NCBI RefSeq assembly: GCF_008086115.1
Contig: NZ_VSIY01000003.1
Location: 434,001-498,000 of the forward strand
Reading direction: 5' to 3'
Origin: Maritimibacter fusiformis
GTDB taxonomy: Bacteria > Pseudomonadota > Alphaproteobacteria > Rhodobacterales > Rhodobacteraceae
Length of the DNA: 64,000 nucleotides
Part shown: positions 51,246 to 63,950 of the stretch, piece after piece
Numbering within the stretch: the first letter of the stretch is position 1
How the letters are laid out: every line of letters begins with the position of its first letter
Made by a program: the position numbers and the translations under genes
Notes under the pieces: model-generated
Databases searched by the model: none
Seen by the model: only the letters and a program-made list of their open reading frames with translations
Told to the model about the DNA's origin: nothing

Positions 51246-51341
51246 ATGCCCTTTCCGAAGCCCGTTTCGGACTGGCCCGAGCCTATTGCGCACCGGTCGG
51301 TTTGGAAAGGCCGCCGCGCCGCCGCATTCCCCTGCGTCACC

Positions 51342-51355
51342 TTGACCAAGGTCAA
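51342..51355. promoter_or_regulatory. FNR/CRP-type palindrome
   Basis: A perfect palindrome, TTGACCAAGGTCAA, within CTTGACCAAGGTCAAG. It resembles the FNR/Dnr-family box TTGAt-N4-aTCAA with C/G at the inner position. It lies about 88 bp before the Pat-like gene start and 97 bp before the MlaC-like start, so it could control either. Confidence 0.55.
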
Positions 51356-51442
51356 GGCGCGCGCGCGGCGCACTTGTTTCTTGGCCCCGGGAGGACGATC
51401 ATCGGACCACGCGCGAAAGCCAGGGTCGAAGGAGCACGAGAC

Positions 51443-54124
51443 ATGGACGCAAGCCCGCTTGCCAAGATGATGAACCCCGAGAACGTGGCCGTGTTCGGGG
51501 CCTCGGACAGTTCGAAAAGCGTCGGCGCGCTGGTCTTCGCCAACCTCGTCTCGGACGGGTTCGAGGGCAAGATCTTCCCGATCAACCCCAAGCACAAGAC
51601 CGTCGGCGGGCTGAAATGCCATGCCAAGGTCACCGATGTCGGCGAAGAGATCGACCTCGCCATCATCGCCACCCCGGCGCGCACCGTGCCCGGCATCATC
51701 CGCGATTGCGGCGAGGCCGGGATCAGGAATGCCATCGTGATCTCGGCCGGTTTCGGCGAGGGCGGCGGCGGCGGCAAGAAGCTCGAGGGCGAGCTGATCG
51801 CGGCGGCCAAACGCGCCGGCATCCGCTTCATGGGGCCGAACTGCGTCGGGCTGGTGCGGCCCTGGCACGGCATGAACGCCACCTTCCTGCGCGCCGGCAC
51901 CCCCAAGGGGCGGCTGGCCCTGATCAGCCAGTCGGGCGCGCTGAACGCGGCGATCTCGGACTGGGCCGGGCCGCACGACCTGGGCTTCTCGGCGCTGGTG
52001 TCGCTGGGCAATGCCACCGATATCGGCTTTGGCGACGTGTTGCAGTTCCTTGCCACCGACCCCCATACCGACGCCATCCTGCTTTATGTCGAAGGCGTCA
52101 AGCAGGCGCAGAAATTCATCTCGGCGCTCAAGATGGCAACTCGGCTCAAGCCGGTGATCGTGCTGAAATCCGGCCGTCACGTGACCTCGGCCAAGGCCGC
52201 CAGCACCCATACCGGTGCGCTCATCGGCTCGGACGCGGTGTTCGACGCGGCGCTGGAGCGCGCCGGTGCGGTGCGCGCCCAGACCTTCGGCCAGCTTTTT
52301 GCCGCCGCCGAGATCCTGTCATCATCGAAACGCTCGAACGGCAACCGGCTGGCGATCGTCACCAATGGCGGCGGCGCGGGCGTGCTGGCCGCCGACCGGG
52401 CCGCCGACCTCGGCGTCGACCTGGCCCAGCTTTCACCCGAGACCATCAAGAAACTCAACAAGGTGCTGCCGGCGCATTGGAGCCACGCCAACCCCGTCGA
52501 CGTGCTGGGTGACGCGGGCGCCAAGGAATACGGCACCGCCATCACCGCCTGCCTCGAGGATCGCAATGTCGACGGGCTTCTGGTGCTGCTCACGCCGCAG
52601 GCGATGACCGATGCCACCGCCGTCGCCCAGGCCCTGATCGACGCCAGCCCCAAGCGCAAGCCAAAGCCGATCCTCGCCTGCTGGATGGGCTCGACCTCGG
52701 TCACCGAGGCGCGCAAGCTGTTGTCGTCCAACGGCATCGCCGATTTCGTCACCCCGGAACGCGCGGTCGAAGCGTTTTCCTACCTCGCCCAGCACGCCCG
52801 CAACCGCCGCCTGGCGCTGGAGACGCCGGGGCCGATGTCCGAAGAGCACGGCCCCAACCTGGAAGGCGCGCGGATGATCCTGGCCAGCGTGCTGGCGGAC
52901 GATCGCGAGATGCTGTCGGATATCGAATCGAAAGCCCTGCTGCGGGCCTTCCGCATCCCGATCAACATGACGATCGAGGCCGACACCGCCGCCAAGGCGC
53001 TGGTCGCCGCCGAGACCGTCGGCTTTCCGGTGGCGATGAAGATCAACTCGCCCGACATCAGCCACAAGTCCGACGTGGGCGGCGTGCGCATCTCGATTTC
53101 CGACGCCGCCGAGGTCAAGCGCACCTTCCACGAGATCACCGAGGGCGTTAAGGCGCTGCGCCCCAACGCCCGCATCAAGGGCGTCACGGTCGAGGCGATG
53201 GCCCGGGTCGAGGATGCCCGCGAACTGGTGATCGGGGCCAGCCGCGACGAGGTGTTCGGCCCCACCATCCTGTTCGGCGCCGGCGGCACCATGGTCGAGA
53301 TCCTGAAAGACAGCGCCGTGGCGCTGCCGCCGCTCAACTCCGTGCTGGCCGACCGGCTGATCAACCGCACCAAGGTGGCGAAGGTGCTCGACGCCTTCCG
53401 CGACCGCCCCGCCGTCGACCGCGACAAGGTGATCGACGTGCTGCTGCGGGTGTCCGACCTGGTCTGCGAACTGGCCGAGGTGGTGGAACTGGACATCAAC
53501 CCGCTGTTCGCCGGGCCGGACGGGGTGCTGGCGGTGGATGCGCGCATCCGCGTCGCCCGCCCGCCCTCGAGCGACGGGCGCTACGACCACGTCGCCATCC
53601 ACCCCTATCCGCGCCACCTGATCATCCGCGATCACCTGACCGATGGCCGCCCGCTGACCATCCGCCCGATCCGCCCGGAGGACGCCGAAAGCGAAAAGGC
53701 CTTCGTGCGCGACCTGTCGGACGAGGCTAAGATGTTCCGCTTCATGGGCGCGCTCAACGAACTCAGCCCCGAGATGCTGGTGCAGTTCACCCAGATCGAC
53801 TACCGCCGCGAAATGGCACTGGTGGCGATGATCGAGGAGGACGGCAAGCAGGTGCAGATCGGCGTGGCGCGCTATGTCATCAACCCCGATGGCACAAGCT
53901 GCGAATTCGCCATCGTGGTCTCCGACAAGGTGCAGCGCCAGGGCATCGGCACCCGGTTGATGAAGGCGCTTTTCGGCGCCGCCCGCGACCACGGCATGAC
54001 GGTGATGGTGGGCAGCGTGCTGAAGAACAACGCCTCGATGCTGCAACTGATGTCCGATCTGGGCTTTACCCAGCGGATGGACCCTGACGACCCGGAACTG
54101 GTGGTCGTCGAACGCTGGCTCTGA
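51443..54124 (+). CDS. acetate-CoA ligase (ADP-forming)-like/GNAT acetyltransferase fusion (Pat-like)
   Basis: An 893-residue protein. An N-terminal CoA-binding and succinyl-CoA ligase-like part has a His256 in STHTGALIGSD, matching the phosphohistidine of ADP-forming ligases. An ATP-grasp region includes GFPVAMKINSPDISHKSDVG, and the C-terminal GNAT domain (about 725-893) has acetyl-CoA-binding KVQRQGIGTRLMKALF. The overall build is that of Pat/PatZ protein acetyltransferases, which modify acetyl-CoA synthetase. GGAG precedes ATG 51443. An HDAC-family gene follows 22 bp downstream, which suggests an acetylation/deacetylation pair. Confidence 0.9.
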   Translation: MDASPLAKMMNPENVAVFGASDSSKSVGALVFANLVSDGFEGKIFPINPKHKTVGGLKCHAKVTDVGEEIDLAIIATPARTVPGIIRDCGEAGIRNAIVISAGFGEGGGGGKKLEGELIAAAKRAGIRFMGPNCVGLVRPWHGMNATFLRAGTPKGRLALISQSGALNAAISDWAGPHDLGFSALVSLGNATDIGFGDVLQFLATDPHTDAILLYVEGVKQAQKFISALKMATRLKPVIVLKSGRHVTSAKAASTHTGALIGSDAVFDAALERAGAVRAQTFGQLFAAAEILSSSKRSNGNRLAIVTNGGGAGVLAADRAADLGVDLAQLSPETIKKLNKVLPAHWSHANPVDVLGDAGAKEYGTAITACLEDRNVDGLLVLLTPQAMTDATAVAQALIDASPKRKPKPILACWMGSTSVTEARKLLSSNGIADFVTPERAVEAFSYLAQHARNRRLALETPGPMSEEHGPNLEGARMILASVLADDREMLSDIESKALLRAFRIPINMTIEADTAAKALVAAETVGFPVAMKINSPDISHKSDVGGVRISISDAAEVKRTFHEITEGVKALRPNARIKGVTVEAMARVEDARELVIGASRDEVFGPTILFGAGGTMVEILKDSAVALPPLNSVLADRLINRTKVAKVLDAFRDRPAVDRDKVIDVLLRVSDLVCELAEVVELDINPLFAGPDGVLAVDARIRVARPPSSDGRYDHVAIHPYPRHLIIRDHLTDGRPLTIRPIRPEDAESEKAFVRDLSDEAKMFRFMGALNELSPEMLVQFTQIDYRREMALVAMIEEDGKQVQIGVARYVINPDGTSCEFAIVVSDKVQRQGIGTRLMKALFGAARDHGMTVMVGSVLKNNASMLQLMSDLGFTQRMDPDDPELVVVERWL

Positions 54125-54146
54125 GGCCGGCAGGAAAGGATAGCGG

Positions 54147-55070
54147 ATGCTGGGGATGATTTCGCACTACGAGTGCCTCGACCACGTGACCGGCGATCTG
54201 CACCCCGACACCCCGGCGCGGCTCGAGGCGATCAACAACCAGCTGATCGCCTCGGGCATGGATTACGTCCTGCGCCATTTCGATGCGCCGCTGGTCAGCC
54301 GCGAGGAACTGGGCCGGGTGCATGACGCGGCCTATCTCGACCGCGTCTATGCGATGGCGCCCGGTCCCGGCGGCGCCCCGGTCGAGATCGACGGCGACAC
54401 GGTGATGAGCCCGGGCACCCTGCGCGCCGCCGAACGCGCCGCCGGGGCCGGTGTCATGGCCGTCGACCTGGTGATGCAGGGCGACGTGAAACCGGTATTC
54501 TGCGCCATCCGCCCGCCCGGCCATCACGCGGTGCGCGGCCAGGCGATGGGCTTTTGCCTGTTCAACAACATCGCCGTCGCCGCCGCCCACGCGATGGAGG
54601 CGCACGGGCTCGAGCGGGTGGCGATCGTGGATTTCGACGTGCACCACGGCAACGGCACCGAGGACATTTTCAAGGGCGACAGGCGGGTGCTGTTCTGCTC
54701 GTCCTTCCAGCACCCGTTCTACCCCTTTACCGGGCATGAGAAAGAGACCGAGAACCTGGTCGACGTGCCGCTGCCCGCCGGCGCCGGGTCCGAGGAGTTC
54801 CGCGCCGCGATCGCCGACCACTGGTTGCCGCATCTGAACAGTTTCGCGCCGCAGATGCTGTTCATCTCGGCCGGTTTCGACGCCCATGTCGCCGACGACA
54901 TGTCGTCGATCTCGCTGGTCGATGGCGACTATGCCTGGCTGACCGAACAGCTCGTCGCCGTGGCCGCGCGCCATTGCGACGGGCGGATCGTCTCGATGCT
55001 CGAGGGCGGCTATGAGCCGGCCACGCTGGCGCGCTCGGTGGTGGCGCATCTGAAGGTGTTGTTGGGCTAG
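54147..55070 (+). CDS. histone deacetylase/AcuC family deacetylase
   Basis: A 307-residue zinc amidohydrolase. Catalytic His126-His127 (RPPGHHAVRG), zinc ligands Asp164 and His166 in VDFDVHHGNGT, and a later Asp in SAGFDAH are intact. Such enzymes deacetylate proteins (AcuC) or polyamines. It is co-transcribed with the Pat-like gene (22 bp gap), which points to reversal of that protein's lysine acetylation. AGGAAAGG precedes the ATG. It is convergent with the M20 gene. Confidence 0.92.
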   Translation: MLGMISHYECLDHVTGDLHPDTPARLEAINNQLIASGMDYVLRHFDAPLVSREELGRVHDAAYLDRVYAMAPGPGGAPVEIDGDTVMSPGTLRAAERAAGAGVMAVDLVMQGDVKPVFCAIRPPGHHAVRGQAMGFCLFNNIAVAAAHAMEAHGLERVAIVDFDVHHGNGTEDIFKGDRRVLFCSSFQHPFYPFTGHEKETENLVDVPLPAGAGSEEFRAAIADHWLPHLNSFAPQMLFISAGFDAHVADDMSSISLVDGDYAWLTEQLVAVAARHCDGRIVSMLEGGYEPATLARSVVAHLKVLLG

Positions 55071-55092: not shown

Positions 55093-56385
55093 TCACACCG
55101 CCTCGACGCCGCACCACTCCGCCACGAACAGCGCCGTCGCCTTGGTCACCCGGCGCATGCTCTCGAGTTCCACGCGTTCGTTGAACCCGTGGATCGCCTC
55201 GGCGCGCGGGCCATAGACCAGCGCGGGAATACCGGCATAGAGCCCGAAGAACCGCGCATCCGTGGTCGCGGTGATCGCCACCCGTTCGAGCGGGCCGCCG
55301 GTCACCGCCCGGTGCGCCCCCTCAAGCGCCGACACCGCCGCCCGCGCCGCCTCGCTTTCGTCCTCGGCCACCGCATAGCCCTCGGCCCGGAACCCGTGGC
55401 AGATCACCTCCGGCAGGCTCTCGCGCAGAAAGGCGTTGTCCTGCGCCGCATCATGCAGCACCGCCTCGATCTCGGCCCGGGCCGCCGCGATGTCCTGCCC
55501 CGGATAGATGCCCATGCGCACGTCGAACACGCACCAGGACGGCACCGAACTGGCCCAGTCGCCGCCCTCGATCCGCCCGATATTGAGGTTCAGCGGATGC
55601 GCCACCCCGGCAAAACCCGGATGCCGCGCCTCGTCGGCATTCCACCTGTCCTCCAACGCGTGCAGCGCCGCGATCAGCGGCACCGCCGCCTCGATCGCAT
55701 TGGCCCCGGTCCCGGCATAGGCGACATGGGTGGGCCGCCCGCGCAGACGCACCTGCAACCACAACACCCCGACCTGCGCCGAGACCAGCGCCTCGGCGAA
55801 GGGCTCGGGGATCAGGGCCGCCTCGGCGCGGTAGCCGCGCTGAAGACAGGCCAGCGCGCCGTTGCCGGTGCACTCCTCCTCGACCACCGATTGCACGAAG
55901 ACATCCGCCGCCGGCGCCAGCCCGGCGCCGCGCAGCGCATCCAGCGCAAAGAGGTTGCCCGCCAGTCCCGCCTTCATGTCGCCCGCGCCCCGGCCATACA
56001 TCCAGCCGCCTTCGACGCGCGGCGCATAGGGCGGGCTGTCCCACATGTCGTGCGGCCCCTCGGGCACCACGTCGATATGCCCGTTCAGGATCAGCGAACG
56101 CCCGCGCGGATTGCGCACGCGGTGCGCCCCGACCACGTTGACCGCATCGTCATAGTCGCCGATCACCGGCGAAAACCCCGGCATGTCGCGGATATCCGCC
56201 ACGTCGATGCGCCAGCGGTCGACCTCGTAGCCGCGCGCCGCCAGCGCCTCGGCCATCATCGCCTGCGCGCCCTGCTCATGGCCCCGTGTCGAAGGATGGC
56301 GCGTCAACTCGGCCAGGAACTCCACCTGCTCGTCGAACCGCGCATCGACCTCGGCAAGGATACGCTCGCGTATGGTCTGATCCAT
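55093..56385 (-). CDS. M20-family deacylase (ArgE/DapE/YodQ-like)
   Basis: A 430-residue metallo-aminoacylase. It has HIDVVPEG with the metal-binding His and catalytic Asp, GRGAGDMKAGLAGNLFALDA, QSVVEEECTGNGALA with the catalytic Glu, and a late AIHGFNERVELESM His. It hydrolyses an N-acyl amino compound. GAGGGG lies 5 nt before ATG 56385. It is the last gene of the leftward cluster and corresponds in position to B. subtilis yodQ. Confidence 0.9.
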   Translation of the reverse strand: MDQTIRERILAEVDARFDEQVEFLAELTRHPSTRGHEQGAQAMMAEALAARGYEVDRWRIDVADIRDMPGFSPVIGDYDDAVNVVGAHRVRNPRGRSLILNGHIDVVPEGPHDMWDSPPYAPRVEGGWMYGRGAGDMKAGLAGNLFALDALRGAGLAPAADVFVQSVVEEECTGNGALACLQRGYRAEAALIPEPFAEALVSAQVGVLWLQVRLRGRPTHVAYAGTGANAIEAAVPLIAALHALEDRWNADEARHPGFAGVAHPLNLNIGRIEGGDWASSVPSWCVFDVRMGIYPGQDIAAARAEIEAVLHDAAQDNAFLRESLPEVICHGFRAEGYAVAEDESEAARAAVSALEGAHRAVTGGPLERVAITATTDARFFGLYAGIPALVYGPRAEAIHGFNERVELESMRRVTKATALFVAEWCGVEAV

Positions 56386-56394
56386 CGCCACCCC

Positions 56395-57027
56395 TCAGAA
56401 CCTCGGAATCTCGCCCTTGGGCCGGGCCAGCGGCGCGTCGGTGGCGGCGGCAACATCGGCAAAGCTCACCCCCTCGGCCAGTTCGCGCAGCACGAAGCCC
56501 GCGCGCGTCACGTCGATCACCGCCATGTCGGTGAACACCCGGTCGACACAGCGCCGCGCGGTCACCGGCAGGGTGCAGGCCCGGCGCAGCTTGGGCACGC
56601 CGTCGCGGTCGACATGGGTGGTCAGCACCACCACCCGGCGCGCCTTCTGCGCCAGTTCGATGCCGCCGCCGGCACCGGGCGAAAACCTTCCGGGGATCTT
56701 CCAGTTGGCCAGGTCGCCGGTCTCGGCCACCTCGAACGCGCCCAGCATCGTCAGGTCGAGCCGCCCCGAGCGCACCAGCGCAAAGCTCACCGCGCTGTCG
56801 AAGAACGCCGACCCCGGCACGGTCGAGACATAGGCCCCGCCCGCGTCGATCAGGTTGCGGTCGGCATGCTCCGGGGCCAGCGTGGGGCCGATGCCCGACA
56901 ACCCGTTCTCGGTATGTAGGCAGACCGGGAAATCCGCCGCCAAGTGGTCGACCACCTTGGTCGGCAGGCCGATCCCGAGGTTCACCACCATCCCCGGTGC
57001 GATCTCGCGCGCCGCGCGCGCGGTCAT
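56395..57027 (-). CDS. 3-oxoacid-type CoA-transferase subunit B (YodR-like)
   Basis: A 210-residue beta subunit with the GMVVNLGIGLPTKVVDHL start and the catalytic glutamate motif HTENGLSGIGP. It transfers CoA between acyl-CoA and a free acid together with subunit A. ATG 57027 has an AGGA site and lies 7 nt after the A subunit stop. It corresponds to yodR. Confidence 0.92.
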   Translation of the reverse strand: MTARAAREIAPGMVVNLGIGLPTKVVDHLAADFPVCLHTENGLSGIGPTLAPEHADRNLIDAGGAYVSTVPGSAFFDSAVSFALVRSGRLDLTMLGAFEVAETGDLANWKIPGRFSPGAGGGIELAQKARRVVVLTTHVDRDGVPKLRRACTLPVTARRCVDRVFTDMAVIDVTRAGFVLRELAEGVSFADVAAATDAPLARPKGEIPRF

Positions 57028-57034
57028 CCGTTTC

Positions 57035-57727
57035 CTAGCGTCGGACAATCTCGTATTCCTCGCTGATCCCCGCCATCGCCACCACGTGATCGACGAACGG
57101 CCCCGGCGTGTGCACCGCGTCAGGTTCAAGCCCGCCCAGCGGCAGGACCGTCTCGGCCTCGGCGATCACGCGCCCGGCGGCCATCGCCATCAGCGGGTTG
57201 AAATTGCGCGCGGTGGCGTCATAGCCGAGGTTGCCGAACACATCCGCCCGCGCGGCATGGATCAGGGCCACGTCGGCGGTCAGCGCGGTTTCGACCATGC
57301 CCGCCGCGCCTTTCACCTCGATGCGCATCTTGCCATTCGCAAGCTCGGTCTCCATCGCGATATCGGTGACGATCCCGGCCAGCCCGGCGCCACCGGCGCG
57401 CACGCGCTCCGCCAGTATCCCCTGGGCGCAGAACTCCACCTCGATCTCGCCCGCGTTCATCATCGCCACCGCGCGCGGGTTCAGCCCGATATGCGTGGTG
57501 ATCAGCCGCGCCACCTGCCCGTTCGCCAACAGGTGATCGACACCCATGCCCTTTTCGTTGGCGTCGTTCTTGATGATGGTCAGCCCCGTCTGCCCCTGCC
57601 GCACAAGCTCGCGGATCAATGAGAACGGCGTGCCCGGCACGCCGAATCCGCCCAGCATCACGGTCGCCCCGTCCGTGATATGCGCCACCGCCTCGGACAT
57701 CGTGCTGGTCTTGTCGGGCAGCCTCAT
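57035..57727 (-). CDS. 3-oxoacid-type CoA-transferase subunit A (YodS-like)
   Basis: A 230-residue alpha subunit: SEAVAHITDGATVMLGGFGV at the N-terminus, GQVARLITTHIGLNPRAVAM for CoA binding, and GVDHLLANG. It overlaps the aminotransferase stop by 4 nt. The A-B pair probably activates the carboxylate produced after transamination, but the specificity is not readable. It corresponds to yodS. Confidence 0.92.
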   Translation of the reverse strand: MRLPDKTSTMSEAVAHITDGATVMLGGFGVPGTPFSLIRELVRQGQTGLTIIKNDANEKGMGVDHLLANGQVARLITTHIGLNPRAVAMMNAGEIEVEFCAQGILAERVRAGGAGLAGIVTDIAMETELANGKMRIEVKGAAGMVETALTADVALIHAARADVFGNLGYDATARNFNPLMAMAAGRVIAEAETVLPLGGLEPDAVHTPGPFVDHVVAMAGISEEYEIVRR

Positions 57728-59064
57728 GCGGTGCCCTCGCGCGGCAAACCGGCCTCGTCCGCGAAGGCGTCGAGGGCGGCCGTCAGCAGGTCCATGATCT
57801 CGTCCACCTGCGCCTCGGTCACGATCAAGGGCGGGCAGATCAGGAAATGATCGCCCTCGATGCCGCCGCGGGTGCGGCGCGAATAGATGATCAGCCCCAT
57901 GTCATAGGCGATATCGACCAGCCGGCTGTGCGCGTTCAGGCCCTTGGGCAGCGGCTCCATGCTGTCGCGGTCGCTGACCATCTCGAACGCCAGCAAGAGC
58001 CCCTTGCCGCGCACGTCGCCGATGAAGGGATAACGCTCCATCAGCCCGATCAGCCGCGCCTTCAGCACCTCGCCCATAGCGCCTGCATTGGCCACCAGCC
58101 CGGCGCGTTCGACCTCGTCCAGCACCGCCAGCCCGGCGGCGCAGGCCAAGGGGTTTCCGGCATAGGTAAAGCCGTGCAGGAACCCGCCCGCGTCCAGCAC
58201 CGCGTCGACGATGTCGTGCCGCGCCACCATCGCCCCCAGCGGCGCGTAACCGGCGGCAAACCCCTTGGACAGCGCCACGATATCGGGGGCGATGCCCCAG
58301 TGTTCGGCGGCAAGGAACTTGCCGGTGCGCCCGGCGCCCGTCATCACCTCGTCGTGGATCAGCAGGATGCCATATTCGTCGCAAATCTCGCGGATGCGCC
58401 CGTAATAGCTGTCAGGTGCGACCAGCGCGCCGGTCGAGGCACCCCCGACCGGCTCCATGATGAAGGCCAGCACGGTCTCGGGCCCCTGCGCTTCGATCTC
58501 GGCGCGCAGAAGCTCGGCATATTTTAGCCCGCGCTCATCGTCCGTCAGGTTGTCGCGGTCGAGATAGCAGGTCGGCGCCGCGATCTTGGGCATGTCGCGC
58601 ATCATCGGATCGAACGGCCGCGCCAGCGGGTCGTATCCGGTCAGCGCCAGCGCCCCCAGCGTGCAGCCGTGATACGAGGGAAAGCGCGAAATCACCTTCC
58701 AGCGCGACGCCTCGCCTTGCGTGATCGCGTATTGCCGCGCCAGCTTGATCGCGCTTTCCACCGCCTCCGACCCGCCCGAAACGAAGAACACCCGGTCCAG
58801 CCCCGCAGGCATCAGGGCGGCGGTGCGCGCCGCCAGATCCTCGGACGCCTCGGTTCGGAAATGCAGCCGGTAGCCGAAGGTGGCGCGGTCCATCTGCGCC
58901 TTCATCGCGGCGAGGACGCGGGGGTTGGAGTGCCCGATATTGGACACCATCGCGCCGGACGAGCCGTCGATATACCGTTTGCCCGACTGGTCGAAGAGAT
59001 AGATCCCCTCGCCCCGGTCCAGGAACGGGCGCGGCTGGCGCGACTGGTAGAAAAGGTTCGACAT
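57724..59064 (-). CDS. class III PLP-dependent aminotransferase (YodT-like)
   Basis: A 446-residue omega-type aminotransferase. It has FVSGGSEAVESAIKLARQYA, LLIHDEVMTGAGRTGKF with the PLP-contacting Asp, and ALSKGFAAGYAPLGAMVA with the Schiff-base Lys. Such enzymes act on amines, beta-amino acids or omega-amino acids rather than alpha-amino acids. It starts at the end of the transporter genes and overlaps the CoA-transferase. It corresponds to yodT. Confidence 0.94.
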   Translation of the reverse strand: MSNLFYQSRQPRPFLDRGEGIYLFDQSGKRYIDGSSGAMVSNIGHSNPRVLAAMKAQMDRATFGYRLHFRTEASEDLAARTAALMPAGLDRVFFVSGGSEAVESAIKLARQYAITQGEASRWKVISRFPSYHGCTLGALALTGYDPLARPFDPMMRDMPKIAAPTCYLDRDNLTDDERGLKYAELLRAEIEAQGPETVLAFIMEPVGGASTGALVAPDSYYGRIREICDEYGILLIHDEVMTGAGRTGKFLAAEHWGIAPDIVALSKGFAAGYAPLGAMVARHDIVDAVLDAGGFLHGFTYAGNPLACAAGLAVLDEVERAGLVANAGAMGEVLKARLIGLMERYPFIGDVRGKGLLLAFEMVSDRDSMEPLPKGLNAHSRLVDIAYDMGLIIYSRRTRGGIEGDHFLICPPLIVTEAQVDEIMDLLTAALDAFADEAGLPREGTA

Positions 59065-59067
59065 GGC

Positions 59068-59841
59068 CTACCTGTTGGCGTTGGCGAGGTGTTTTCGCAG
59101 GAAATTCTGGGTGCGCTCGTTATCGGGGTTGCGAAAGATCTTCTCCGGCGGCCCCTCTTCCACCACCACGCCCTGATCCATGAACAGAACCCGGTCGCAG
59201 ACCGATTCCGCGAATCCCATCTCGTGCGTGACGATCACCATCGTCATGTGTTCCTCGGCCAGCTTCTTCATCACCAGGTTGACCTCCTCGACCAGTTCCG
59301 GGTCGAGCGCCGATGTCGCCTCGTCGAACAGCATCACCTTGGGTTTCATCGCCAGCGCGCGGGCAATCGCGACGCGCTGCTTCTGCCCACCCGACAGCCG
59401 CGACGGGTAATAGTCGATCCGGTCGATCATCCCGACCTTCTCCAGTTGCTCGCGCGCCAGTTCCTCGGCCTCGTCGTCCGACAGGCCCTTGAGCATCTTC
59501 GGCGCCAGCGTCACGTTCTCGCGCACCGACAGGTGCGGAAACAGGTTGAAGTGCTGAAACACCATGCCGATGTTCTGGCGCACCTGGTTGATGTGTTTCT
59601 CGTATTGCCGGTGCGGCAGCTTCTTGTTGATCTGCACATCCTCCAGCCAGACCTCGCCCGCGGTCAGCGGATCGAGGTCGTTGATCGCGCGCAACAGCGT
59701 CGACTTGCCCGAGCCGGACGGGCCGATGATCGCGACGATCTGGCCGCGGTTCACCCGCAGGCTGATGTCTTTCAGGACCTCGAGCTTGCCATAGCTTTTC
59801 TTGGCGTTGCGGATGTCGAGAAAGGGTTTCTCGTCGGTCAT
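59068..59841 (-). CDS. polar amino-acid ABC transporter ATP-binding protein
   Basis: A 257-residue ATPase of the GlnQ/HisP family: Walker [14 protein letters not shown], signature [19 protein letters not shown], Walker [15 protein letters not shown] and H-loop VIVTHEMGF. It serves the two permeases and the binding protein of this cluster. It ends 3 nt before the aminotransferase start. Confidence 0.94.
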
Positions 59842-59856
59842 GCTGCTCCCTCCGGC

Positions 59857-60513
59857 CTAGCGCGCGGCCTGGATGCGGCGCTCGATCCGGCGCAGCACCC
59901 ATTCCATGCCAAGGTTGATGACGTAATAGAACGCCGCCGCGACGACGTAGAATTCGAACGGTCGATAGGTGCGCCCGATGGCGCGCTGCGCCGACAGGGT
60001 CAGTTCCGACACCCCGATCACCGACACCAGCGCCGAGTCCTTCAGCAGCGCGATCATGTTGTTGCCGATCGGCGGGATCACGTCGCGCACCGCCTGCGGC
60101 ACCACCACCTTGCGCAGCGCCTGCCCGCGCGACAGGCCAAGGGTGCGCGCCGCCTCCATCTGGCCACGGTCCACCGCGACGATCGCGGTCTGGATCAGTT
60201 CCGAGTTGTAGACCGCGAAATGCAGCCCCAGCCCGATCACCCCGGCGACGAAGGCCGGCAGGTCGATGCCCACCTGCACCAGCCCGAAATAGATCAGGAA
60301 CAGTTGCAGCAAGAGCGGCGTGCCCATGAACAGCCATTCGAACAGGCGAAACGGCAACCGGATGATCCAGTGGGTATAAAGCGCGATGACGGCGAAGAAG
60401 ATGCCGCCGAAAAAGCTCAGGATCGCGGCCCCGGCGGTGATGCCGATGGTCCACAGCACCCCCAGCAGGATGATGTCGAGGAACTTGGGAACGACCGAGA
60501 AATCAAGCCCCAT
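59857..60513 (-). CDS. polar amino-acid ABC transporter permease 1
   Basis: A 218-residue permease of the HisM/GlnP family with about five membrane segments and the EAA-type loop GQMEAARTLGLSRGQALRKV that docks the ATPase. It is 15 bp before the ATPase gene and 27 bp after the second permease. Confidence 0.92.
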   Translation of the reverse strand: MGLDFSVVPKFLDIILLGVLWTIGITAGAAILSFFGGIFFAVIALYTHWIIRLPFRLFEWLFMGTPLLLQLFLIYFGLVQVGIDLPAFVAGVIGLGLHFAVYNSELIQTAIVAVDRGQMEAARTLGLSRGQALRKVVVPQAVRDVIPPIGNNMIALLKDSALVSVIGVSELTLSAQRAIGRTYRPFEFYVVAAAFYYVINLGMEWVLRRIERRIQAAR

Positions 60514-60540
60514 GCCGGCCTCCTGTCTGCGCCCGCCCGC

Positions 60541-61188
60541 TCATACGATCCGCGCCCGGCGGTCGAGCCAGGCGATGCCGCGCCCGGTCACGTAGATGAT
60601 CACCATGTAGAGAACCCCCGCCAGCAGGAACATTTCGAACGGCTTGTAGGTCGACCCGATGTAGCGCTGCGCCGTATAGGTCAGCTCGATCACCGAGATC
60701 GGCGCGACCAGCGCTGTGCCCTTGATCAGCGCGTTGATGTTGACGCCCAGGGGCCGGATCATCAGCCGCGCCGCCTGTGGCAGCACCACCTTGCGGAACG
60801 ACTGCACCTGGCTCATCCCCAGGGTGCGCGCAGCCTCGCGCTGGCCCTTGTCGATGGCGATGATCGCGCCGCGGATGGTCTCGGTCATGTAGGCGCCGAT
60901 ATTGACCCCCAGCCCGATCACGCCCGCCGAGAACGCGTCAAGCTGGATGCCGATCTGCGGCCCGCCGAAGTAGAGGATGAAAAGCTGGATCAGCGCCGGC
61001 GTGCCCCGGATCACGCTGACATAGGCCGCCCCGATCCAGCGCAGCGCCGCGAACCGCGACAGCCGCGCCGCCGCGCCGAGCGAACCCATGATCAGCCCCA
61101 GGATGGTGGTCAGCACCGACAGCTCGATCGTGACCACCGCCGCCTTGAGGAAGAACGGGTAGACCCGCATCATCAGATCGACATCCAT
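60541..61188 (-). CDS. polar amino-acid ABC transporter permease 2
   Basis: A 215-residue permease of the same family with the docking loop GQREAARTLGMSQVQSFRKV. The pair of distinct permeases implies a heterodimeric channel. It starts 12 bp after the creatininase-family gene, in the same leftward transcript. Confidence 0.92.
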   Translation of the reverse strand: MDVDLMMRVYPFFLKAAVVTIELSVLTTILGLIMGSLGAAARLSRFAALRWIGAAYVSVIRGTPALIQLFILYFGGPQIGIQLDAFSAGVIGLGVNIGAYMTETIRGAIIAIDKGQREAARTLGMSQVQSFRKVVLPQAARLMIRPLGVNINALIKGTALVAPISVIELTYTAQRYIGSTYKPFEMFLLAGVLYMVIIYVTGRGIAWLDRRARIV

Positions 61189-61200
61189 CGCCCCGCCCCT

Positions 61201-61995
61201 CTAGTGATGGTCCACGCGCTCGAGGATCGGCAGCGCGCGGATCTCGCGCACCAGCGCCGTGGTCTCCTCGATCGCGGCCTCCAGGAATTTGCGCCCGGTC
61301 TCGGCATCGGCCACCGTCGGATCGCCCATCGTGCCGTCGGGCGACACCGCCGACCACCAGCGCATCAGCATCGCCCGTCCCCCGCCGCGCGCCAGGTCGA
61401 GGTTGAAGAACCGGCTGTCGGGATCATGCAGGTTCTGCGCCGCCGCCTTGCCCAGGTCGACATGCTCGGGGTGCAGATGCAGATACATCGCCGCCTCGAA
61501 CTCGCCGGCATGCGCGATGCCGCCGGTCTCGGACTTGCGATGTTCGTTGATCCGCTCGGAACACAGGTTCCAGTAGCTTGCCGACACGCAGATCACCCCG
61601 GTTTCGATCACCGTCTTGCGCGCGGCAAGGTCCAGCACCGGGTGGTTGGAGCCATGCGAATTCAACAGCAGAATACGCCGGAACCCGTGATGCGCCAGCG
61701 ACCGGGTGATGTCGCAGACAAAGGCGATCAGCGTTTCCGGCCCGATCCAGATCACGCCGGGGAAATCCTTGTGATGCTCGTTGAAGCCATAAGGCACCGG
61801 CGGCATCACCAGCACCTCCTCGGGCGCCGCCGCCGCCACGCCATTGGCCACCGCCATGCCCAGCACCGTGTCGGTATCGAGCGGCATGTGCGGCCCGTGG
61901 TCCTCGGTCGCCGAGACGTTCAGGATCACGACCCGATCCTTGTCGATGTCGCGCACCTCTTGCCAGGTCAGCTTGGCGTAGTCGGTCGTCGTCAT
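61201..61995 (-). CDS. creatininase-family amidohydrolase
   Basis: A 264-residue metal-dependent hydrolase of the creatininase family. Glu31, His33 and Asp42 (SATEDHGPHMPLDTDT) have the Glu-x-His-x8-Asp spacing of the binuclear metal site, and LNSHGSNHPVL and HAGEFEAAMYL follow. The family opens cyclic amides such as creatinine or hydrolyses formamides and peptides. Between the binding protein and permeases it may process the imported compound. ATG 61995 was chosen over a start 15 nt further up. Confidence 0.9.
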   Translation of the reverse strand: MTTTDYAKLTWQEVRDIDKDRVVILNVSATEDHGPHMPLDTDTVLGMAVANGVAAAAPEEVLVMPPVPYGFNEHHKDFPGVIWIGPETLIAFVCDITRSLAHHGFRRILLLNSHGSNHPVLDLAARKTVIETGVICVSASYWNLCSERINEHRKSETGGIAHAGEFEAAMYLHLHPEHVDLGKAAAQNLHDPDSRFFNLDLARGGGRAMLMRWWSAVSPDGTMGDPTVADAETGRKFLEAAIEETTALVREIRALPILERVDHH

Positions 61996-62016
61996 GTCGT
62001 GAAAATCCAAAACGAG

Positions 62017-62042
62017 GCCCGCCGACCGTGGCCGGCGGGCCG
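62017..62042 (-). terminator. hairpin between binding-protein gene and creatininase gene
   Basis: GGCCCGCCG and CGGCGGGCC pair around ACCGTGGC. No T tract follows, so it is likely a partial terminator or mRNA stabiliser that keeps binding-protein expression higher than that of the downstream genes. Confidence 0.6.
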
Positions 62043-62050
62043 AAGCTGCA

Positions 62051-62833
62051 TCAGCGGATGTCGGCGCCGATCCATTCCATCGCGATCTCGGTATAGGTGC
62101 CGTCTTCCATCATCGCGTCGAGCGCCTCCTGCATCGCGGCGGCCAGGTCGGGGTTGCCCTCGCGGATGGCGAAGCCGGCGCCGAATTCCTCGGTCTCGAA
62201 CTCGATGGTGTCGTATTCCTGACCCTTCTCGTTCATCGCGAGAATCGCGGCGATCGAATCGTTCACGATCGCGTCGACACGCCCGTTCTCGAGCTCCAGC
62301 AGCAATTCCGGCAGCCCCTTGTAGGTGCGCACCTTCCAGCCGCGTTCGCGCGCCCATTCCTCGTGGGTCTCGCCCAGCGTCACGCCGATCTCGGCATCGG
62401 CAAGCTGGTCGATCGAGGTGAACTCGCTGCCGGGCTGGGTGAAGATCGCCCGCTTGGTGGTGTAATAGGGGCCGACGAAATCGACCACCTCGTCGCGCTC
62501 CTCGGTGATCGTCATCGAGCCGATCACAGTGTCATACTTGTTGGCCAGCAGCCCGCCGATGATGCCGTCCCACGCGGTCGTCACGATCTCGGCCTCGACG
62601 CCCATCCGCCGGGCGATTTCCTTGCCGATCGAGGGGTCGAAGCCGACCACCTCGTTCTGGTCGTTGACGAAGTTGAACGGCGGGTAGGCGCCGCTCATCG
62701 CGATGCGGATCACGCCGCGTTCCTTGATCGCCTCAAGTTCGTCGGCAAAAGCGCCCGAGGCGAACCCCAGCCCGGTCACCGCCGCGATGCCGGCCGTCGC
62801 CAGCGTCTTCACAATCGTCCTGCGCAAAACCAT
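62051..62833 (-). CDS. polar amino-acid ABC substrate-binding protein
   Basis: A 260-residue periplasmic binding protein with a signal peptide (VLRRTIVKTLATAGIAAVTG ... GAFAD) and the family signature GVIRIAMSGAYPPFNFVNDQ. It is the first gene of the leftward catabolic/transport cluster. Ligand unknown; the Asp/Glu and Arg positions of amino-acid binders cannot be judged by eye. Confidence 0.93.
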   Translation of the reverse strand: MVLRRTIVKTLATAGIAAVTGLGFASGAFADELEAIKERGVIRIAMSGAYPPFNFVNDQNEVVGFDPSIGKEIARRMGVEAEIVTTAWDGIIGGLLANKYDTVIGSMTITEERDEVVDFVGPYYTTKRAIFTQPGSEFTSIDQLADAEIGVTLGETHEEWARERGWKVRTYKGLPELLLELENGRVDAIVNDSIAAILAMNEKGQEYDTIEFETEEFGAGFAIREGNPDLAAAMQEALDAMMEDGTYTEIAMEWIGADIR

Positions 62834-62978: not shown

Positions 62979-63950
62979 ATGCTGCGCCCCTATGAACACC
63001 GTTTCCCCTGGAACCTCGACTGGAATCTCCTGCGCACCTTCATGGTCGTGGTCGAACAGCGCAGCATCTCGCGGGCGGCGGATTTTCTCGGCCTGAAACA
63101 GCCCACTGTCAGCGCCGCACTGAAACGGCTGGAGGACAGCGTCGGACAGGTGCTTATCGAACGACGGCCCAACCGCTTCCGCGTCACCCGCGCCGGCGAG
63201 GTGCTGTTTTCCGAATGCAGCACGATCTTCGGCACCGTGTCGCAACTGCCCGCGCTGATGCAGGCCGGCGCCGACACCCTCAGCGGCCATATCTCGCTGG
63301 TGATGACCAGCCACGTGGTCTCGCCGCATCTCGACGCGGTGCTGGCCGACTTCGCCCAGCGCCACCGCGACGTGACCTTCTCGGTGGTGGTGGCCGAAAG
63401 CGGCGAGGTGCTCAAGCTGATCGAACAGAACCGCGCCGCCTTCGGCATCTGCCTCATCAACCGCCAGCCCCGGCACCTGCACGCGCCGGTCCTCTGCCGC
63501 GAGTTCTTCGCGCTCTATTGCGGCGCCAAGCACCGGCTGTTCGGCAAGGCCCGCATCGCGCTGGCCGACCTGGCGGGCGAACCGTCGGTGGCGTTTCACA
63601 CCGAGGTCGAGGGCGGGCCGCTGCAATCGGTCAACCGGCTGCGCGAACGGGCGCGCCTGGCCCCCGGCCCGCGCGGCGTGTCCGCCAACCTGCCCGAGGT
63701 GCGCCGCATGATCGTCGCCAACATCGGCATCGGCGCGCTGCCGGTGCATGTGGCGGCGCGCGACGTGGGCCTGGGCCTGCTGCGCCAACTGCCGCCGCAC
63801 GACCGTCTGCCGGCGATCGACATCCACCTTGTCACCAACCCCCGCCGGCAGATGTCCGCGCCCGAGGCCGCGCTGAACGCCGCCTTCACCGATCTGATCG
63901 ACGGCGAGAGCCTGGCCGCCCGCACCTACGGCGTTTCTGCGCCACTCTGA
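62979..63950 (+). CDS. LysR-family transcriptional regulator
   Basis: A 323-residue regulator. The N-terminal winged helix (residues about 15-74) has TFMVVVEQRSISRAADFLGL and KQPTVSAALKRLEDSVGQVL; the C-terminal effector domain follows. It is divergent from the catabolic cluster and so probably controls it in response to the transported compound, through the palindrome at 62919-62943. The remaining 50 bp of the window after its stop include a TTTGATCAAA palindrome and no gene. Confidence 0.93.
   Translation: MLRPYEHRFPWNLDWNLLRTFMVVVEQRSISRAADFLGLKQPTVSAALKRLEDSVGQVLIERRPNRFRVTRAGEVLFSECSTIFGTVSQLPALMQAGADTLSGHISLVMTSHVVSPHLDAVLADFAQRHRDVTFSVVVAESGEVLKLIEQNRAAFGICLINRQPRHLHAPVLCREFFALYCGAKHRLFGKARIALADLAGEPSVAFHTEVEGGPLQSVNRLRERARLAPGPRGVSANLPEVRRMIVANIGIGALPVHVAARDVGLGLLRQLPPHDRLPAIDIHLVTNPRRQMSAPEAALNAAFTDLIDGESLAARTYGVSAPL

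What the first reader, a model, noticed from the sequence alone, without database searches (positions are those of the whole stretch)
55093..62833. yodT-S-R-Q-like cassette fused with an amino-acid importer and a creatininase-family hydrolase
Class III aminotransferase, CoA-transferase A, CoA-transferase B and M20 deacylase follow each other in the order of B. subtilis yodT, yodS, yodR, yodQ, with overlaps or gaps under 10 nt. The Bacillus operon adds an acetyltransferase and lysine 2,3-aminomutase; both are absent here. Instead there is a complete polar amino-acid ABC transporter, a creatininase-family amidohydrolase and a divergent LysR regulator. This suggests a self-contained catabolic route: import, ring or amide opening, transamination, CoA activation and deacylation. 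Substrate guesses (beta-amino acid, N-acyl diamine or lactam) are inference only.
Basis: partly seen in the sequence, partly recalled or inferred. Interest (0 to 1): 0.8.

Follow-up and report, generated by a model that had tools for sequence, protein, structure and literature searches.

The report
Beta-lysine scavenging operon with swappable modules
A bacterial operon that most likely imports and digests an unusual amino acid (an acylated form of beta-lysine) is kept nearly whole in dozens of related bacteria, and its middle and last steps are carried out by two interchangeable enzyme sets, which points to candidate genes for reactions that may never have been tied to genes.

Summary
Nine minus-strand genes (62833 to 55093) encode a binding protein, a creatininase-fold amidohydrolase, two permeases, an ATPase, a class III aminotransferase (AT), CoA-transferase A and B and an M20 deacylase, opposite a LysR gene. 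AT-CoTA-CoTB-M20 has the order of the Bacillus yod operon, where it precedes ablB-ablA. The creatininase-fold gene marks a conserved cassette: of 69 loci with an orthologue (71% identity or more), 65 run past the AT; 47 continue with CoTA-CoTB (46 with M20), 18 with a beta-keto-acid cleavage enzyme, BKACE (17 with an acetylpolyamine-amidohydrolase-like deacetylase); none has both or neither. A thiolase follows in 30 of 47 CoA-transferase loci and 0 of 18 BKACE loci. The AT product is therefore most likely a beta-keto acid, so its substrate is a beta-amino acid. Links to lysine 2,3-aminomutase in Bacillus and on rhizobial plasmids, recurrent acetyltransferases and the deacetylases point to N6-acyl-beta-lysine broken down to 4-aminobutyrate. 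No aminomutase or cassette acetyltransferase was found in the window's genome, so it probably scavenges. The creatininase-fold enzyme is not creatininase; its role (freeing the substrate from an amide) is a guess. Substrate and reactions are inferred from gene context; nothing was assayed.

The parts
62979..63950 (+). LysR-type regulator, divergent
   Evidence: Pfam PF00126 + PF03466; homologue beside the cassette in 67 of 69 creatininase loci, the other two (L123, L126) being cut by the contig end, and in 15 of 28 AT loci of the class search
62051..62833 (-). periplasmic binding protein of a polar amino-acid (PAAT) importer
   Evidence: PF00497; 59-85% identical in sister cassettes; solved relatives include Gln- and other amino-acid-binding proteins
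62016..62041 (-). GC-rich hairpin between binding-protein and creatininase-fold genes (possibly an attenuator or mRNA-stability element that raises binding-protein output; inference)
   Evidence: 11-pair stem; -29.9 kcal/mol, z -3.4, 1 of 200 shuffles as good; a 45-nt stretch folding at -18.8 kcal/mol or better in the same gap of 67 of 67 sister loci measured (no shuffle control there)
61201..62010 (-). creatininase-fold (PF02633) metallo-amidohydrolase, cassette marker; proposed entry hydrolase
   Evidence: PF02633 233.8 bits; 69 close orthologues, all among the importer genes of this cassette; model pLDDT 90 matching creatininase 3a6j
60541..61188 (-). PAAT permease 1
   Evidence: PF00528, TIGR01726
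59857..60513 (-). PAAT permease 2
   Evidence: TIGR01726 over cut-off
59068..59841 (-). PAAT ATPase
   Evidence: best NCBIfam model EhuA 315.7 bits, under its cut-off of 345.4
57724..59064 (-). class III aminotransferase, proposed N6-acyl-beta-lysine beta-transaminase (YodT-like)
   Evidence: PF00202; followed by CoA-transferase (with a GNAT gene in between in 15) or BKACE in all 65 creatininase-cassette loci that reach that far
57035..57727 (-). 3-oxoacid CoA-transferase subunit A
   Evidence: TIGR02429 216.2 bits over cut-off 128.5
56395..57027 (-). 3-oxoacid CoA-transferase subunit B (start at 57027 chosen by likeness to annotated homologues; a TTG lies at 57048)
   Evidence: TIGR02428 251.4 bits over cut-off 243.55
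55093..56391 (-). M20 ArgE/DapE-family deacylase, proposed 4-acetamidobutyryl-CoA / 4-acetamidobutyrate deacetylase (YodQ-like)
   Evidence: NF005306 635.4 bits over cut-off 376; 69% identical to the M20 beside a lysine 2,3-aminomutase-like gene in Rhizobium sp. C104

Best explanation
The cassette imports and catabolises an acylated beta-lysine compound. Proposed route: (1) the PAAT importer takes up a beta-lysine conjugate; (2) the creatininase-fold hydrolase splits an amide to free N6-acyl-beta-lysine (weakest step); (3) the class III aminotransferase removes the beta-amino group, giving 6-acetamido-3-oxohexanoate; (4) CoTA/CoTB make its CoA thioester; (5) a thiolase, encoded elsewhere in this genome, cuts it to acetyl-CoA and 4-acetamidobutyryl-CoA; (6) the M20 deacylase removes the acetyl group, giving 4-aminobutyryl-CoA or 4-aminobutyrate, which goes to succinate by the ordinary GABA route. 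In sister cassettes steps 4-5 are done by one enzyme, BKACE, and step 6 by an acetylpolyamine-amidohydrolase-like enzyme. The N-acetyl group would stop 6-amino-3-oxohexanoate from closing to a pyrroline. Shown: gene content, order, conservation, module exchange. Inferred: the substrate and every reaction.
For: Of 69 close creatininase loci, 65 reach past the AT: 47 CoTA-CoTB, 18 BKACE, 0 both, 0 neither; both enzyme types act on beta-keto acids (family knowledge). The exchange happened more than once: 5 changes on the quick AT tree, of which well-supported branches force at least 2, 4 without three long rows, and the CoA-transferase rows as one clade are rejected (AU p 2.4e-106). A thiolase starts 7-110 nt after M20 in 30 of 47 CoA-transferase loci and 0 of 18 BKACE loci (Fisher p 1.8e-6, rows not independent). 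Each module carries its own deacetylase: M20 46 of 47, HDAC-like 17 of 18, a representative of the latter being closest to acetylpolyamine amidohydrolases. GNAT genes alike in sequence lie inside 15 of 47 and 11 of 18. Beta-lysine link: same gene order with ablB and ablA in two Bacillaceae; in Rhizobium sp. C104 a lysine-2,3-aminomutase-like gene (TIGR03822 555.9 bits, cut-off 396.25) ends about 436 nt before CoTA-CoTB-M20-thiolase-GNAT; 9 of 9 rhizobial plasmids with an M20 of 65% identity or more carry that aminomutase at 79% or more; it aligns with solved LAM 2a5h and keeps the two Asp that I recall as binding the epsilon-amine. The own genome has two thiolases of 59-61% identity to the cassette type and an SSADH over cut-off.
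Against: No enzyme was assayed. No aminomutase and no cassette GNAT were found in the own genome, so the beta-lysine link is by homology. The aminomutase is adjacent in only 1 of 9 rhizobial plasmids; in the others it lies about 7 to 120 kb away, and four more S. meliloti plasmids carry it at 78-79% but are not among the M20 hits of 65% or more. The rhizobial module, where read (L156, L157), has a HemL-like aminotransferase, not this one. The GNATs are not AblB (no TIGR03827 hit for the three tried; no BLAST match). NCBIfam names the BKACE a 3,5-dioxohexanoate enzyme, over its cut-off. Four AT loci with the DMFA2_C gene (L033, L047, L048, L050) show no deacetylase, L049/L126 lacks M20, and L038 has neither CoTA nor BKACE. 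M20 identity to the Bacillus protein is only 33-34%, and the M20 model matched is not substrate-specific.
Confidence: 0.58

Rival explanations
1. Same chemistry (beta-amino acid to beta-keto acid to CoA ester or acetyl-CoA cleavage, plus removal of an N-acyl group), but the substrate is another acylated diamino acid or beta-amino acid conjugate, for example a beta-ornithine, beta-arginine or 3,5-diaminohexanoate derivative or a natural-product fragment.
For: All context evidence for the beta-keto acid holds without lysine; the genes that may feed the pathway vary: creatininase fold, DMFA2_C protein (PF20254), amidohydrolase plus alanine racemase, DAO plus Rid, which suggests several conjugates or substrates.
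Against: Aminomutase and AblB/AblA links in Bacillus and rhizobia; Asp pair kept in the rhizobial aminomutase (its lysine role is recalled).
Confidence: 0.3
2. The AT is an omega-amine or alpha-amino acid transaminase and the CoA-transferase, thiolase or BKACE handle an unrelated acid, as an ordinary amino-acid catabolic cluster of mixed content.
For: Class III aminotransferases are broad; the nearest solved structure, 3i4j, has no known substrate to my knowledge.
Against: Strict either/or of CoA-transferase and BKACE behind the AT in 65 of 65 loci, with more than one exchange, is hard to explain if the AT product is not their substrate.
Confidence: 0.07
3. Creatinine or a creatinine-like ring is the substrate: the creatininase-fold enzyme opens it and the rest consumes the product.
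For: PF02633 family membership and closest fold creatininase 3a6j.
Against: TIGR04448 creatininase 109 bits against cut-off 235; creatininase E122 aligns with S121 and W174 with a gap between G163 and G164 (both residues are named in the mutant titles); no creatinase or sarcosine oxidase among the operon's family hits; the gene is missing from AT clusters that keep importer, CoA-transferase and M20 (L147).
Confidence: 0.03

Closest known systems
Bacillus yodT-yodS-yodR-yodQ-yodP(ablB)-kamA(ablA) operon
   Same: Gene order AT-CoTA-CoTB-M20, tight spacing, homologous proteins at 33-49% identity
   Different: No ablB/ablA; importer, creatininase-fold hydrolase and LysR added. YodT and the role of KamA were described as unknown in a 2019 survey (PMC6522883, passages)
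L-beta-lysine degradation of a Pseudomonas studied by Barker and co-workers, with EC 2.6.1.65 and EC 3.5.1.51 (recalled; no call returned these papers)
   Same: Proposed steps match what I recall: N6-acetylation, beta-transamination, cleavage, deacetylation to 4-aminobutyrate
   Different: There the acetyltransferase acts first; here none was found, and the genes of that pathway are, to my recall, not assigned
Lysine fermentation with Kce (BKACE), AtoA/AtoD and the HemL-like 3-aminobutyryl-CoA transaminase Kat (PMC3149608, passages)
   Same: Uses BKACE, a CoA-transferase, a thiolase and a class III beta-transaminase downstream of lysine 2,3-aminomutase
   Different: Goes through 3,5-diaminohexanoate; the transamination is on a CoA ester; no acyl protection
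Ectoine uptake and degradation (ehuABCD with hydrolase, deacetylase and aminotransferase; recalled)
   Same: Same type of importer (EhuA the best model for the ATPase) followed by hydrolase, deacylase and aminotransferase logic
   Different: EhuA and EhuB models are under cut-off (315.7 against 345.4; 74.7 against 190.9); other hydrolase families
Creatininase EC 3.5.2.10 and relatives MftE and IolN
   Same: Fold and aligned metal-site residues E36, H38, D47, H119 (ligand roles recalled)
   Different: Under the three equivalog cut-offs; creatininase E122 and W174 not kept

Membership tests
Bacillus yod / abl operon type | AT-CoTA-CoTB-M20 in one operon and in this order | tested here: met
Bacillus yod / abl operon type | ablB and ablA in the same operon | tested here: not met
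   absent from the operon; no AblA match in the genome
Bacillus yod / abl operon type | AT and M20 reach the equivalog models that I take to be YodT and YodQ (PRK06917, PRK06915; that reading is mine) | tested here: not met
   428.2 against 535 and 309.4 against 428 bits
3-oxoacid CoA-transferase (ScoAB/PcaIJ family) | both subunits over the TIGR02429 and TIGR02428 cut-offs | tested here: met
   216.2 and 251.4 bits
ArgE/DapE family deacylase PRK06837 | score over cut-off | tested here: met
   635.4 against 376; the model names no substrate
Creatininase (EC 3.5.2.10) | TIGR04448 cut-off 235 | tested here: not met
   109 bits
Creatininase (EC 3.5.2.10) | E122 (metal ligand, recalled) and W174 (flap, recalled) | tested here: not met
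   S121, and a gap between G163 and G164, at the aligned places; S121 invariant in 24 aligned relatives
PF02633 creatininase-fold superfamily | Pfam cut-off and metal-site residues | tested here: met
   233.8 against 31.3 bits; E36, H38, D47, H119, E170 invariant in 24 aligned sequences
Mycofactocin MftE | TIGR03964 cut-off 172 | tested here: not met
   145.5 bits
N6-acetyl-beta-lysine degradation (EC 2.6.1.65 / 3.5.1.51) | transaminase active on N6-acetyl-beta-lysine | not testable with these tools
   needs an assay
N6-acetyl-beta-lysine degradation (EC 2.6.1.65 / 3.5.1.51) | beta-keto acid processing gene behind the transaminase | tested here: met
   65 of 65 creatininase-cassette loci that reach it; 18 of 19 AT loci of 64% identity or more in the class search
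N6-acetyl-beta-lysine degradation (EC 2.6.1.65 / 3.5.1.51) | beta-lysine acetyltransferase in the organism | tested here: inconclusive
   cassette-type GNAT not found in own genome; present in 26 of 65 sister cassettes; AblB was not searched in the own genome
Ectoine Ehu transporter | EhuA and EhuB equivalog cut-offs | tested here: not met

The most novel reading that the evidence does not exclude
The cassette is a dedicated salvage route for an environmental beta-lysine conjugate (an amide, lactam or peptide). Its creatininase-fold enzyme is a new amidohydrolase activity that opens this conjugate, and in other bacteria a DMFA2_C protein, an amidohydrolase with a racemase, or a FAD oxidase feeds other conjugates into the same transaminase. 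Rhizobial plasmids that carry the module beside lysine 2,3-aminomutase, ATP-grasp and NRPS genes would be makers as well as eaters of such a compound.
Probability: 0.35. Interest if true: 0.78.

Novelty: new variant of a known kind. Interest (0 to 1): 0.62.

Why it matters
It gives concrete, clonable candidates for beta-lysine catabolic reactions that, to my recall, are known only from enzyme work without genes (EC 2.6.1.65 and 3.5.1.51), offers a function for the unexplained yodTSRQ genes beside kamA in Bacillus, and predicts who eats N-epsilon-acetyl-beta-lysine, an osmolyte of salt-adapted methanogens (PMC1224877, passages). The repeated swap of CoA-transferase + M20 (often with a thiolase) for BKACE + HDAC-like deacetylase behind one transaminase is a clean natural example of two enzyme sets for what look like the same reactions.

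Tried and rejected
Creatinine catabolism: rejected on model scores and residues. Ectoine system: under cut-offs. Function from distant creatininase-fold relatives: 11 relatives of 36-44% identity in other phyla; none of the 11 loci has other cassette genes (several of these contigs are only 4-7 kb), and 8 of the 11 neighbourhoods were looked at by eye, without a family scan, and showed no common theme. Defence system: no PADLOC hit for the two proteins tried. Aminomutase in the own phylum: 0 of 299 genomes over the AblA cut-off. The window's HDAC-family gene (54147-55070) as part of the cassette: in AT loci it only finds the APAH genes at 31-35% identity, and it was no best hit in the creatininase loci. 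Peribacillus and Nitratireductor M20 hits lie in other contexts. Literature: searches for yodQ/R/S/T, acetyl-beta-lysine catabolism, BKACE, names of the acetamido intermediates and EC 2.6.1.65 (41), beta-lysine with Pseudomonas, acetylpolyamine amidohydrolase with Kce, beta-lysine orphan enzymes, yodP/kamA, creatininase with beta-lysine or BKACE (106) listed no paper that, by title and listed start of abstract, describes this cassette or its genes; of the papers only passages of PMC6522883, PMC3149608 and PMC1224877 were seen, the rest as listings. The library lacks most subscription papers. BKACE pocket residues against Kce were not compared.

Rows dropped: the AT tree used 99 of 113 loci plus the window (loci without AT, or with weak, short or interrupted hits, left out); the AU test left out L058-L060; the alignment used 14 of 69 close and 9 of 11 distant loci; the hairpin count used 67 of 69 loci; the counts leave out the 11 distant loci. 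L049 and L126 have the same length, match positions and AT and are taken as one contig; L105/L106 are near copies. Loci are not independent samples.


Full report
What is there. Nine genes run on the minus strand from 62833 to 55093 with short gaps or overlaps, opposite a LysR gene at 62979-63950. NCBIfam and Pfam identify a PAAT-type importer (binding protein, two permeases, ATPase), a PF02633 creatininase-fold protein, a class III aminotransferase (AT), 3-oxoacid CoA-transferase A and B (both over their curated cut-offs) and an M20 ArgE/DapE-family deacylase (NF005306, 635 bits). A strong hairpin sits between the binding-protein and creatininase-fold genes, and the same gap can form one in 67 of 67 sister loci measured (no shuffle control there).

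The Bacillus comparison is right. In B. velezensis and Cytobacillus spongiae the order is AT, CoTA, CoTB, M20 'peptidase', ablB, ablA; the window proteins are 33-49% identical to these. YodT and the window AT share the same nearest solved structure, 3I4J (for YodT: PMC6522883, passages). The same survey calls YodT uncharacterised and the role of KamA undetermined.

The cassette is real and conserved. All 69 lie among the importer genes of this cassette; 4 are cut off by a contig end before the deciding gene. Of the other 65, 47 go on from the AT to CoTA-CoTB (46 with M20) and 18 to BKACE (17 with an acetylpolyamine-amidohydrolase-like HDAC-family protein); none has both, none neither. None of the 11 distant relatives has the cassette. 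The gene is patchy: 1 of 288 other genomes of the class and 9 of 148 other genomes of the family.

The AT defines the pathway. A class-wide search gave 28 other genomes of 384 with an AT homologue. Of the 19 at 64% identity or more, 15 have BKACE, 3 CoTA-CoTB and 1 (L038) neither; of the 9 at 49-61%, none has BKACE and one has a distant CoTA-CoTB about 7 kb away. On the quick AT tree the downstream module changes 5 times, of which well-supported branches force at least 2, 4 times without three long rows, and a single clade for the CoA-transferase type is rejected. BKACE (PF05853) and 3-oxoacid CoA-transferase both take beta-keto acids (established knowledge of the families), so the AT most likely makes one. 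This predicts a thiolase for the CoA-transferase type only: it starts 7-110 nt behind M20 in 30 of 47 such loci and appears in 0 of 18 BKACE loci. The window's operon lacks it, but the genome has two thiolases of 59-61% identity to it.

Why an acyl group. Both module types bring a deacetylase, of unrelated families: M20, or an HDAC-family protein whose closest solved relatives (one representative searched) are acetylpolyamine amidohydrolases. GNAT acetyltransferase genes alike in sequence (35-40% mutual identity for three representatives) lie inside 15 of 47 CoA-transferase and 11 of 18 BKACE cassettes. Acetylate, transaminate, cleave, deacetylate is the order that I recall for beta-lysine breakdown in a Pseudomonas; the acetyl group would stop a 6-amino-3-oxo acid from closing to a pyrroline (inference).

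Why beta-lysine. Besides ablA/ablB in Bacillus, Rhizobium sp. C104 has a lysine-2,3-aminomutase-like gene ending about 436 nt before CoTA-CoTB-M20-thiolase-GNAT; the M20 is 69% identical to the window's. All 9 rhizobial plasmids with an M20 of 65% or more carry this aminomutase at 79% or more, though it is adjacent only in C104 and about 7 to 120 kb away in the others; four more S. meliloti plasmids have it at 78-79% but are not among those M20 hits, and in S. meliloti ml56 the CoA-transferase is annotated in five fragments. It aligns with solved lysine 2,3-aminomutase 2a5h, including the two Asp that I recall as binding the side-chain amine. The transaminase there is HemL-like (L156; L157 is 90% identical to it), the type of Kat, a beta-transaminase of lysine fermentation that works on CoA esters (PMC3149608, passages).

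The window's organism probably scavenges. No lysine 2,3-aminomutase and no cassette GNAT were found in a genome given as 94.8% complete, but it has an importer and an SSADH over cut-off. N-epsilon-acetyl-beta-lysine is an osmolyte of salt-adapted methanogens (PMC1224877, passages), and many hosts of the cassette bear names that I know as marine or saline genera, so it is a sensible candidate.

The creatininase-fold enzyme. It keeps E36, H38, D47, H119 and E170 (ligand roles recalled) and folds like creatininase (pLDDT 90; top match 3a6j), but scores 109 bits against a creatininase cut-off of 235, has serine in place of E122 and a gap in place of W174. In AT loci without it other genes appear: a DMFA2_C protein (5 loci of 113, never with the creatininase-fold gene, which is in 70; Pfam checked on one of them; also annotated in L156), an amidohydrolase with alanine racemase (but also together with the creatininase-fold gene in L067), or a DAO oxidase with or without Rid. 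This looks like a set of exchangeable entry enzymes, and amide hydrolysis is my guess for this one; I give that step about 0.4.

Against. Nothing was assayed; the aminomutase link is to the CoTAB-M20-thiolase-GNAT module, not to this AT; four DMFA2_C loci show no deacetylase and L049/L126 lacks M20; the GNATs are not AblB; NCBIfam's BKACE name is a 3,5-dioxohexanoate enzyme over its cut-off. A different acylated beta-amino acid remains possible (0.3). My confidence is about 0.85 for a beta-keto acid intermediate and 0.58 for the beta-lysine pathway as stated.

Noticed in passing
just outside the window: L178:14034-15173 (own genome C11, about 498033-499172): A FAD-dependent DAO-family oxidoreductase follows the LysR gene on the same strand; homologues (39-65% identity) lie in 11 of the 113 loci compared, 8 of them AT loci with a Pot-type transporter, but in only 1 of 69 creatininase loci (L088). 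It may be a further entry enzyme of the same regulon.
   Followed up: partly
L159, L160, L161 (Rhizobium plasmids): In the stretch around the CoTAB-M20-thiolase module lie one or two lysine 2,3-aminomutase genes, ATP-grasp or biotin-carboxylase-like genes, in C104 an NRPS condensation-domain gene, and peptidases: possibly a cluster that makes a beta-lysine-containing compound.
   Followed up: no
window 51302-55070: An ADP-forming acyl-CoA synthetase with a GNAT domain (PatZ/Pat type, recalled name) and an HDAC-family protein run towards the cassette; a possible protein acetylation/deacetylation or acyl-CoA pair, not seen as part of the cassette elsewhere.
   Followed up: partly
L033, L047, L048, L050, L150, L156: A DMFA2_C-like protein (PF20254 confirmed for L033) beside a beta-transaminase or CoTAB module, in five of the six with an amino-acid importer; suggests that N,N-dimethylformamidase-beta-like proteins include hydrolases of natural amino-acid amides.
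   Followed up: partly
L175 (own genome C12:246000-262000): A second, distant class III aminotransferase (33%) and a BKACE (35%) lie within 16 kb of each other together with an aldehyde-dehydrogenase gene; the gene after BKACE looks by eye like a 3-hydroxyacyl or carnitine dehydrogenase, so this may be carnitine breakdown.
   Followed up: no
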